From assembly GCA_028819565.1 (NCBI GenBank), contig JAPPLD010000004.1, forward strand, positions 1 to 36,504: a DNA stretch of 36,504 nt. The letters are read 5' to 3'. The DNA is from Gammaproteobacteria bacterium (GTDB lineage Bacteria; Pseudomonadota; Gammaproteobacteria; Poriferisulfidales; Poriferisulfidaceae). The stretch's first letter is position 1. Each line of letters opens with the position of its first letter. Under the pieces are notes generated by a model, which was not told the DNA's origin, ran no database searches, and was given only the letters and a program-made list of their open reading frames with translations. Position numbers and translations under genes: made by a program. This document shows, piece by piece, positions 29,942 through 32,509 of the stretch.

Positions 29942-31312
29942 GTGGAAATTCACACGCTGAGCTGGCGCGAGACGCTGGCTATGTACCGGGACATCCGGAT
30001 GGTGCGGATCCTTCTGATCGGCACGTTGAGCGGGCTGCCGCAGGTCGCGGTGCTGTCCATGATGACCCTGTGGTTGCAGGAGAGCGGATTCAGCCGGACG
30101 GACATCGGCCTGTTCGGTCTCGTGCTGGTGGTGTATGCGGTCAATGTCGCGTGGGCCCCCATCGTGGATGCGGTGCGCCTTCCGGTCCTGGCCCGATGGT
30201 TGGGTCCCCGACGATCCTGGATTGTCGCCATGCAGACGGTGATCGTCGTCTGCCTGGCCGCGCTGTCGCGTCTGGAGCCCGACGGGCAGCTTGAGTGGGT
30301 TGCGGTCTGGGCGGTGGTGTTGGCGGCTGCCGGTGCGACCCAGGACGTCGCGATCGATGCCTTGCGGATTGAGCAGTTTCGCGAAGACGAGCCGCGCAAG
30401 GTTGGTGGGGGCTCGGCGATGGCGACTTCCGGCTGGTGGATCGGCTACGGCTTGGGCGGGGGGCTTGCCCTGTGGCTGGTGGAGTGGTTGCAGGAAGCCG
30501 GGATCGAACAGGCTTGGCAACAGGGCTATCTTTGGTTGATCCTGCTGGTCGGCGTGCTGGTCGGGCTGTTTCTCTGGCTGGTGCCGGAACCCGACCGGCC
30601 CCGGCAGACGGCGGAACGGACCGTCGGTTGGGGACTTCATCTCGTGAAAATGTACGTGCACCCCGTGCGGAGTTTCGTGGTGCGCTACGGGGCGCAGCTT
30701 GCAGTCTTCCTGTTGCTGGCGATTTTCTTGTTCAAGGTAGGCGAGGCTTTCCTGGGGCGGATGTCGCTGGTGTTCTATACCGAGATCGGCTTCTCCAAGT
30801 CGGATATCGCGCTGTATTCCAAGGGCTACGGGGCCGTGGCCATTGCCGTCTTCGCGGTGCTGGGCAGCCTGATCAATGCCCGCTACGGCTTGCTGCGCGG
30901 AATCATCATCGGTGGCGTGGCGATGGCATTGACCAACCTGCTCTTCGCGTTGTTGGCCTGGTACCCGTCGTCGGGGCTGTTCGTGGTTGCCGTGATCGCC
31001 GACCAGTTCACCACGGCGATCTCGACCGTCGCGTTCGTCGCTTTCCTGTCGCAGTTGTGTGACCGGAACTGGACCGCGACCCAGTATGCGGCTCTGGCCT
31101 CCTTGGGCACGCTGTCCCGGACCCTGCTTGCCGCAGGCAGCGGCATTCTGATCGACGGGTTGGGGGGTGACTGGCCGCTGTTCTTCGTCATCACGACCCT
31201 GATGGTGGTGCCGAGCCTCCTGCTGATCGCAATGAACCGTCGTCGGCTTGCACCCTTCATGGAAGGGCGGTCAGTGAGTAGTATCCATGTTGTCAAGCAG
31301 AGGATGAGTTGA
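29942..31312 (+). CDS. MFS permease, AmpG-like; 3' end altered by IS insertion
   Basis: A 456-residue membrane protein with about 12 hydrophobic segments and a GTG start. The first part, LLIGTLSGLPQVAVLSMMTLWLQ followed by IGLFGLVLVVYAVNVAWAPIVD, resembles AmpG-type muropeptide permeases, and TQDVAIDALRIE is a further AmpG-like segment. AmpG imports anhydro-muropeptides for cell-wall recycling; the exact substrate is inferred. The last 10 residues (SIHVVKQRMS) and the stop codon come from the adjacent IS110 element. Joining the sequence across the element changes the end to RMGES with a TAA at 32489-32491, 18 bp before phoU. The original gene was therefore probably in an operon with phoU. The tail lies outside the membrane core, so the protein is likely still functional. 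Confidence 0.85.
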   Translation: MEIHTLSWRETLAMYRDIRMVRILLIGTLSGLPQVAVLSMMTLWLQESGFSRTDIGLFGLVLVVYAVNVAWAPIVDAVRLPVLARWLGPRRSWIVAMQTVIVVCLAALSRLEPDGQLEWVAVWAVVLAAAGATQDVAIDALRIEQFREDEPRKVGGGSAMATSGWWIGYGLGGGLALWLVEWLQEAGIEQAWQQGYLWLILLVGVLVGLFLWLVPEPDRPRQTAERTVGWGLHLVKMYVHPVRSFVVRYGAQLAVFLLLAIFLFKVGEAFLGRMSLVFYTEIGFSKSDIALYSKGYGAVAIAVFAVLGSLINARYGLLRGIIIGGVAMALTNLLFALLAWYPSSGLFVVAVIADQFTTAISTVAFVAFLSQLCDRNWTATQYAALASLGTLSRTLLAAGSGILIDGLGGDWPLFFVITTLMVVPSLLLIAMNRRRLAPFMEGRSVSSIHVVKQRMS

Positions 31313-31315
31313 CGC

Positions 31316-32266
31316 TCAACGTGGTGCGACCCTGTAGTCTGCCGTCCAGGTCCGATCCTGCTTGACGAGCGTATTGGCCAGGATGATCAGTTTCCTCATG
31401 ATGGCGGTCAGCGCCACCTTGCCGGGCTTCCCGGCGTTCCGGAGCTGAAGGTACTTGGCGCGGAGGTCCGGGTTGTGCCGGGAGGCCGCCAAGGCGGCCA
31501 TGTAGAGGCCGCGCCGCAGTCGCGCGCGCCCGCCCTGGGTGAAGCTTTTCCCCTTCCAGGCCCCGGACTCGCGGGTCATCGGGGCCAGGCCGGCCAGGCT
31601 GGCCCCTTCGCGGGACTCCAGCGTGCCGATCTCCGGCAGTTCCGCCAGCACGGTGGCCGAGGTGATCCGGGAGATACCGGGGATCGAGGTCAGGATCCGA
31701 TCCGCCCGCGCCAGCGCCGCATCGGTCCGGATCAGTTCCGCCGTTTCCGTGTCCAGGGCGTCCAGGGCGCGCTCGATCTGGCGGAGCCGGTTCCGGCACG
31801 GTCGTCTGGGCGTCGGCTGGCGAAGATGGAGCTCGCGGCTTTTCGCCACGGTGCGATCCCGCACCAGGGCCCAGCGGGCCAGCTGCAACTCCCGCAGTTC
31901 GCGCTGCCGGGGCGGTGGCAGAACGGTCGGGCGCAGGTCGAACGCGGTCCCCATCTGCGCCAGCAGGGCCGCATCCAGCACATCCGTCTTCGCCCGCCGG
32001 CCCAGAGCCTGTGCGAAGCGCCGTGCCTGCAGGGGGTTGACGCGCGCCAGCGGCAACCCGGCATCGAGCAGCGCCTGCTCGAAGTCCCGGTGCCAGTGCC
32101 CGGTCGGCTCGTAGACGACGCGGTCGCGCGACCGCCCCGCCAGCCAGGCCAGCAGGTCGCGATAGCCGGTCTTGTTGTTCGGGAACTGCCGGACCTCGCC
32201 GGTGGGGGCCAGATGCGCGTCCAGCCGGTCTTTCGAAATGTCCACGCCAAGGGTAAGATAAGTCAT
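31316..32266 (-). CDS. IS110-family transposase (DEDD recombinase)
   Basis: ATG 32266 has an AGGAGAGG ribosome site and gives a 316-residue protein. The N-terminal RuvC-like DEDD domain has Asp9 in GVDISKDR, Glu53 in YEPTGHW and Asp95/Asp98 in AKTDVLDA. The C-terminal Tnp_20 domain has IPGISRITSATVLAELPEIG and a basic block FTQGGRARLRRGLYMAALAA. Proteins of this family recombine DNA guided by a bridge RNA encoded in the non-coding end of the element. The longer frame up to 32510 lies in another reading frame and is not the transposase. The gene looks intact. Confidence 0.93.
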   Translation of the reverse strand: MTYLTLGVDISKDRLDAHLAPTGEVRQFPNNKTGYRDLLAWLAGRSRDRVVYEPTGHWHRDFEQALLDAGLPLARVNPLQARRFAQALGRRAKTDVLDAALLAQMGTAFDLRPTVLPPPRQRELRELQLARWALVRDRTVAKSRELHLRQPTPRRPCRNRLRQIERALDALDTETAELIRTDAALARADRILTSIPGISRITSATVLAELPEIGTLESREGASLAGLAPMTRESGAWKGKSFTQGGRARLRRGLYMAALAASRHNPDLRAKYLQLRNAGKPGKVALTAIMRKLIILANTLVKQDRTWTADYRVAPR

Positions 32267-32281
32267 GGTTCCTCTCCTGTC

Positions 32282-32452
32282 TCCTGTTCTTGTCATGCGA
32301 GCCTTGATGCTCCTGTATCCATTCAGGACGATGGGAAAGGGCGGGAACGACTCGACTACTCAACGGTCCTTGATGACCCAGAATGGACAGCCCGACTCCC
32401 GCCCCCCGGCGTCTGTGGACGCCGGGGAGGAACTTCTGTCTGTTGAAGTTCC
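32282..32452 (-). ncRNA. candidate IS110 bridge RNA
   Basis: Read on the - strand from 32452 to 32282, about 171 nt. First comes GGAACTTC-8 nt-GAAGTTCC (32452-32429), then CCCCGGCGTC-CACA-GACGCCGGGG (32427-32404). Next is a large internal loop closed by GGGCGGGA/TCCCGCCC (32404-32397 with 32346-32339), containing the inner hairpin GGTC-ATCAAG-GACC. Last is a second loop closed by TCCTG/CAGGA (32328-32324 with 32286-32282), with inner hairpin GAGC-ATCAAG-GCTC. The first loop contains CCATTCT (32386-32380) and TGAGTAGT (32362-32355), matching the genomic flanks. The second contains ATGGATAC (32322-32315) and GACAAG (32294-32289), matching the element's own ends. This is the published order of target and donor guides in IS110 bridge RNAs. 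Transcript ends are estimates. Confidence 0.75.
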
Positions 32453-32509
32453 CTTTCGGTAACAGAACAGACAAGAATGGGAGAGAGTTAAGGTAACCGG
32501 AGCAGTGCA

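What the first reader, a model, noticed from the sequence alone, without database searches (positions are those of the whole stretch)
31275..32480. An IS110 element whose bridge RNA guides can be read from sequence and match both flanks and both ends
In the non-coding region upstream of the transposase, in transposase orientation, the first large loop holds CCATTCT, identical to the top strand of the left flank (RC of 32474-32480). It also holds TGAGTAGT, the reverse complement of the top strand of the right flank (flank + strand at 31275-31282). The second loop holds ATGGATAC, identical to the right end of the element (RC of 31281-31288). It also holds GACAAG, the reverse complement of the left end. 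All four meet at the dinucleotide CT/AG; three of the four include it fully and ATGGATAC includes only its C. This order (left guide same sense, right guide antisense, target loop before donor loop) is what is known for IS110 bridge RNAs such as that of IS621. Matches are 6-8 nt each, but all four fall where the model requires.
Basis: partly seen in the sequence, partly recalled or inferred. Interest (0 to 1): 0.92.

Follow-up and report, generated by a model that had tools for sequence, protein, structure and literature searches.

The report
IS110 transposon with readable bridge RNA
This is an ordinary jumping gene of the IS110 family whose built-in guide RNA can be read letter by letter; empty sites in sister genomes and a second insertion into the same 12-letter sequence confirm the reading, but the mechanism itself was already known.

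Summary
The element is 1,194 bp (31282-32475, minus strand). It carries an intact IS110/IS621-type DEDD transposase and a 209-bp leader that encodes a bridge RNA. Four independent tests agree.
(1) Sister genomes hold the empty site ...GTGAGTAG|AATGG..., so only one extra CT core is present, exactly as predicted.
(2) A covariance model built from 33 relatives, without this element, finds the leader as its only convincing hit in the window (86.8 bits, E 1.6e-20).
(3) Across 34 non-redundant elements the target loop matches its own flanks far better than other elements' flanks (observed 435; best of 20,000 permutations 368). The donor guide changes together with the element end.
(4) A second, truncated copy sits at a site whose empty version in a sister genome reads CCATTCTACTCA, the same 12-mer the guides specify.
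The fine details also follow IS621: the left donor guide stops at the C of the core, the right donor guide is discontiguous, and handshake bases are present. This is a new member of a known kind. It is a clean natural example and not a new principle; the first score of 0.92 was too high.

The parts
31282..32475 (-). Complete IS110-group element, 1,194 bp including one CT core (at 32474-32475; the equivalent core copy at 31280-31281 lies on the other side)
   Evidence: Empty sites in G001, G002 and G004
31316..32266 (-). Intact DEDD transposase/recombinase, 316 aa (D9, E53, D95, D98, catalytic S234)
   Evidence: Pfam DEDD_Tnp_IS110 1.6e-22 and Transposase_20 1.9e-20; IS621 structure 8wt6 E 1.6e-34; residues invariant in the alignment
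32267..32475 (-). Left non-coding end, 209 bp
   Evidence: Sequence and ORF map
32282..32424 (-). Bridge RNA core (target-binding and donor-binding loops, part of the 5' hairpin region)
   Evidence: Held-out covariance model R1, 86.8 bits, E 1.6e-20, full length 1-151
32400..32457 (-). 5' hairpins GGAACTTC/GAAGTTCC and CCCCGGCGTC/GACGCCGGGG (approximate limits)
   Evidence: RNA fold, z -3.68 for 32276-32463
32380..32386 (-). Left target guide CCAUUCU
   Evidence: Identical to left flank 32474-32480
32356..32362 (-). Right target guide UGAGUAG, preceded by a GU linker, followed by handshake base U (32355)
   Evidence: Reverse complement of core CT plus right flank ACTCA
32315..32322 (-). Left donor guide AUGGAUAC (stops at the C of the core, as in IS621)
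   Evidence: Identical to right end 31281-31288
32289..32297 (-). Right donor guide CA[U]GACAAG, followed by handshake AA (32287-32288)
   Evidence: Reverse complement of CTTGTC (32470-32475), then TG after one bulged U
31280..31288 (-). Right end ATGGATA plus core CT (left donor and core)
31275..31279 (-). Right target ACTCA (flank)
32476..32480 (-). Left target CCATT (flank)
29942..31312 (+). MFS transporter gene into whose 3' end the element inserted; the C-terminus changes from predicted ...RSVSRMGES to ...RSVSSIHVVKQRMS
   Evidence: Pfam MFS_1; joined flanks and sister genomes

Best explanation
An IS110-group insertion sequence that moves by bridge-RNA-guided recombination. The element is excised as a circle, which joins right end and left end into the donor ATGGATA-CT-TGTCTG (inferred). 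A promoter with a perfect -35 (TTGACA) spans that junction and should drive the leader RNA (inferred). The RNA's first loop pairs with the target CCATT-CT-ACTCA (left guide to the bottom strand, right guide to the top strand) and the second loop pairs with the donor. The transposase then exchanges strands at the shared CT, leaving no target duplication beyond CT. The sequence match of loops to target and donor, the site use and the ends are shown here; RNA expression, RNA binding and catalysis are inferred from IS621.
For: Exact ends and CT core from three empty sites. Held-out covariance model hit, E 1.6e-20, the only significant one in the window and the only one in the genome. Consensus structure with two loops and inner hairpins, 13 of 19 pairs with compensatory change. 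Target loop tracks flanks in 34 elements, 0 of 20,000 permutations reach the observed value. Donor guide and right end change together: ATGGATA in both here and in L046, ACGGATT in both in L061, ACGGAAA in both in L069, ACGGATA in both in nearly all others. Second copy in the same genome: its empty site in G002 reads CCATTCTACTCA exactly. Transposase matches the IS621 structure with all catalytic residues. Same syntax as IS621: left guide, hairpin GGGU..ACC, GU linker, right guide, handshake.
Against: No RNA data. The -10 box of the circle junction is poor in this element (TCTGTT), whereas relatives have TATGAT/TATGAC. Base pairing beyond the five target bases on each side is not supported (the next bases mismatch or wobble). 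The CM built from this subfamily does not hit IS621 itself, so membership rests on protein, syntax and base pairing, not on RNA sequence similarity to IS621.
Confidence: 0.97

Rival explanations
1. The four short matches are chance, and the leader is only an untranslated region or regulatory hairpin of an IS110 transposase.
For: Each match is only 6-8 nt; the leader also folds into strong hairpins that would look structured anyway.
Against: Permutation over 34 elements, held-out model hit, donor co-variation, and the second insertion into the same 12-mer.
Confidence: 0.01
2. The target loop is real but the element is now stuck: a relic whose bridge RNA is no longer transcribed because the circle-junction promoter has a weak -10, so the one full copy is immobile.
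For: -10 is TCTGTT in this element against TATGAT-like in relatives; one full copy and one truncated copy only; no unoccupied exact CCATTCTACTYA remains in the genome.
Against: Transposase ORF intact; the truncated copy is 100% identical over 216 bp, so movement was recent; -35 is a perfect TTGACA.
Confidence: 0.15
3. The element belongs to the IS1111 group with the guide RNA in the right end.
For: Same transposase superfamily; a short GACAA...TTGTC inverted repeat flanks the donor sequence.
Against: Non-coding left end 209 bp, right end 34 bp; the bridge RNA model matches the left end; sub-terminal repeat is only 5 bp.
Confidence: 0.01

Closest known systems
IS621 (IS110 group) and its bridge RNA (PMC11208160, PMC11208158)
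   Same: DEDD recombinase with catalytic Ser; RNA in the left end; target loop before donor loop; left guides same-sense, right guides antisense; CT core; left donor guide ending at the C; GU linker before the right target guide; discontiguous right donor guide; handshake bases.
   Different: Different subfamily: low-identity transposase (phmmer E 1.6e-34) and no RNA sequence similarity detectable by the subfamily model; right donor guide has one bulged U and 8 pairs instead of two bulged U and 7; target is CCATTCTACTCA; right target guide is the long 7-nt form.
Alphaproteobacterial IS110 relatives (Sphingobium, Rhizobium, Roseobacter and others; L034-L083) and elements in MAGs L046, L061, L085
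   Same: About 47-56% identical transposase, same leader architecture, left end CTTGTC, donor loop GAACGGATAC or GAATGGATAC.
   Different: Other target guides and other flanks; donor ACGGATA instead of ATGGATA, except L046, which shares ATGGATA.
ISCro4 (PDB 9t56)
   Same: IS110-type recombinase with a solved structure, second-best PDB hit (E 3.4e-33).
   Different: Its RNA was not compared here.
IS1111 group and seekRNA (PMC11187229)
   Same: Same transposase superfamily, RNA-guided target choice.
   Different: IS1111 elements have long right ends with the RNA there; here the RNA is in the long left end.

Membership tests
IS110 group of the IS110 family | DEDD (RuvC-like) N-terminal domain and Tnp domain with catalytic serine | tested here: met
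   Pfam PF01548 and PF02371 over cut-off; D9, E53, D95, D98, S234 invariant and aligned with the IS621 residues
IS110 group of the IS110 family | Left non-coding end longer than right end, no long sub-terminal inverted repeats | tested here: met
   209 bp against 34 bp; only a 5-bp GACAA/TTGTC repeat
IS110 group of the IS110 family | Insertion at a core dinucleotide without a longer target duplication | tested here: met
   Empty sites carry one CT, the filled site two
Bridge RNA system (IS621 type) | Structured RNA in the left end with target-binding then donor-binding loop | tested here: met
   Held-out model hit, consensus structure with compensatory changes
Bridge RNA system (IS621 type) | Guides complementary to left target bottom strand, right target top strand, left donor bottom strand, right donor top strand, core included | tested here: met
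   left donor guide includes only the C of the core, as in IS621
Bridge RNA system (IS621 type) | Target guides co-vary with insertion sites among orthologues | tested here: met
   34 elements, 0 of 20,000 permutations; second copy's empty site
Bridge RNA system (IS621 type) | Promoter reconstituted at the circle junction | tested here: inconclusive
   TTGACA-18-TCTGTT here (weak -10), TTGACC-17-TATGAT type in relatives
Bridge RNA system (IS621 type) | RNA is transcribed, binds the recombinase and is needed for recombination | not testable with these tools
   Needs RNA sequencing and recombination assays
IS1111 group | Long right end carrying the RNA, 7-17 bp sub-terminal inverted repeats | tested here: not met
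   Right end 34 bp; RNA in left end

The most novel reading that the evidence does not exclude
This subfamily (donor ACGGATA/ATGGATA-CT-TGTC, one bulged base in the right donor guide, 8 donor pairs, naturally long 7-nt right target guide, 12-bp exact target) is a bridge-RNA variant with stricter natural site choice than IS621; in this genome no unoccupied exact copy of the 12-mer was found.
Probability: 0.15. Interest if true: 0.4.

Novelty: new member of a known kind. Interest (0 to 1): 0.25.

Why it matters
It shows that the target of an IS110 element can be read from raw sequence and then verified: two insertions in one genome, each with an empty counterpart in sister genomes, fall on the sequence the guides specify. 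The subfamily offers a set of about 30 natural guide-target pairs, which could be useful for choosing further bridge recombinases, but it adds no new principle.

Tried and rejected
Rfam has no bridge RNA model that matched. The single-sequence scan of genome contigs found no relatives because its patterns were too specific; an alignment query worked. The subfamily model R1 does not detect IS621, so RNA homology to IS621 could not be shown by sequence. Folding of only the two loops without the 5' hairpins is not better than shuffles, so the single-sequence fold was not used as evidence; the alignment-based structure was. The idea that the shared ACT beyond the right end belongs to the element was rejected by the empty sites.

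Full report
OBSERVATION. Read in transposase orientation (minus strand), the left junction is CTCTCTCCCATT-CT-TGTCTGTTCTG and the right junction is CTTGACAACATGGATA-CT-ACTCACTGACC. The leader holds CCATTCT (32380-32386), TGAGTAG(T) (32355/6-32362), ATGGATAC (32315-32322) and GACAAG (32289-32294).

ELEMENT AND ENDS. The left flank and the right flank of the element match sister genomes G001, G002 and G004 of the same genus; in G001 and G002 they abut as one continuous stretch. The joined stretch there reads ...GGTCAGTGAGTAG|AATGG... in G001 and G002 and ...GGTCAGTGGGTAG|AATGG... in G004. The filled site therefore carries one extra CT and nothing else: the element is 1,194 bp, 31282-32475, with no longer target duplication. 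The flanking MFS transporter ends ...RSVSRMEEG or ...RSVSRMGEG in G001/G002 and is predicted to end ...RSVSRMGES here without the element; with the element it ends ...RSVSSIHVVKQRMS.

TRANSPOSASE. P0001 (316 aa) has both IS110 Pfam domains. Its best solved structures are IS621 (8wt6, E 1.6e-34) and ISCro4 (9t56). D9, E53, D95, D98 and S234 are invariant among relatives and align with the DEDD residues and S241 of IS621.

BRIDGE RNA. Relatives at about 47-56% transposase identity were collected from plasmids, 80 genome loci and 50 viral-contig loci (these sets also hold more distant ones). Most of the closer ones carry the same leader: left end CTTGTC, then two loops, then the donor loop GAACGGATAC...GACAAG, then the start codon. 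A consensus fold of 33 non-redundant leaders, without this element, gives a target-loop stem with inner hairpin and a donor-loop stem with inner hairpin; 13 of 19 pairs show compensatory change. A covariance model from these 33 finds the window at 32424-32282 (-) full length with 86.8 bits, E 1.6e-20; the next hit has E 2.9. It is the only hit in the genome.

GUIDES. For 34 non-redundant elements I scored the best fit of the own flanks (7 left bases + CT, and reverse complement of CT + 5 right bases) in the target loop. The sum is 435; 20,000 permutations of flanks among elements never exceeded 368. For this element no other element's flanks do as well, and 49 of 100,000 random flank pairs do. 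The right guide sits at a fixed place (about 30 nt before the donor-loop anchor in nearly all elements). The donor guide changes with the element end: ATGGATA in guide and end here and in L046, ACGGATT in L061, ACGGAAA in L069, ACGGATA in nearly all others. These data show a target loop that follows the flanks and a donor loop that follows the ends.

SECOND INSERTION. The same genome carries a truncated copy, contig C18 152208-152423, 100% identical over 216 bp and ending in the same right end. Its right flank is CT-ACTTA, one base off ACTCA; the changed base would form an rG:dT pair, a kind tolerated by IS621 (PMC11208160). The left half is lost. The uninterrupted site in sister genome G002 reads AATTTGAGTAGAATGGCAGC, the reverse complement of GCTGCCATTCTACTCAAATT: the same 12-mer CCATTCTACTCA. 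The target was fixed in advance by the window's guides, so this is an independent test with ten non-core positions. No unoccupied CCATTCTACTYA was found in the own genome.

COMPARISON WITH IS621. The rules come from PMC11208160 and PMC11208158, and IS621 itself was read in E. coli records. IS621 reads AUCGGGCCU-U-GGGUUCUAACC-U-GU-UGC-GUAG-AU; this element reads CCAUUCU-GGGUCAUCAAGGACC-GU-UGAGUAG-UC. Here too the left donor guide ends at the C of the core, the right donor guide is interrupted (CA[U]GACAAG), and one handshake base in the target loop (U, opposite A at donor position 7) and two in the donor loop (AA, opposite TT at target positions 6-7) fit. The circle junction would give TTGACA-18-TCTGTT; relatives have TTGAYC-17-TATGAT-like, so the promoter claim is only partly supported in this copy.

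VERDICT. The reading is right and much better supported than from the window alone. It is a new member of a known kind. Bridge RNAs were predicted in 85.7% of ISfinder IS110-group elements (PMC11208160), so surprise is low; the value is a clean natural test with empty sites. Not shown: transcription, binding, catalysis.

Noticed in passing
G000 contig C18 152208-152854 (L010 1209-1855): The truncated second copy is fused to a ferritin-like (by reading, bacterioferritin-type) gene that has lost its 5' part; intact IS and intact gene (G002) share CGCCAA at the junction, which suggests a deletion through 6-bp microhomology that began inside the IS.
   Followed up: partly
G004 C1 1310245-1310411 (L003 about 1501-1667): A 74% identical right-end fragment of a sister element with the same donor end ATGGATA-CT but another flank (CACTTC) and a broken reading frame.
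   Followed up: partly
L046, L061, L085: Among the closest relatives (53-56% identity) are elements in MAGs of Bryobacterales and Gammaproteobacteria; from their isolate codes I suspect sponge samples (not checked), which would point to exchange of the element among symbionts. L046 shares the ATGGATA donor.
   Followed up: no
G000 C30 3753-4175 and G001-G005: A different IS110-family transposase (about 390-430 aa open frame) occurs in every genome of the genus; its RNA was not examined.
   Followed up: no
L191 (G001 C25 after 182808): A run of more than 50 G in a draft contig next to the empty second site, probably an assembly artefact.
   Followed up: no
L154, L149: Some relatives have a donor guide ending GGATAG or an end GGATAACT, departures from the C of the core that may show non-CT cores or decayed copies.
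   Followed up: no
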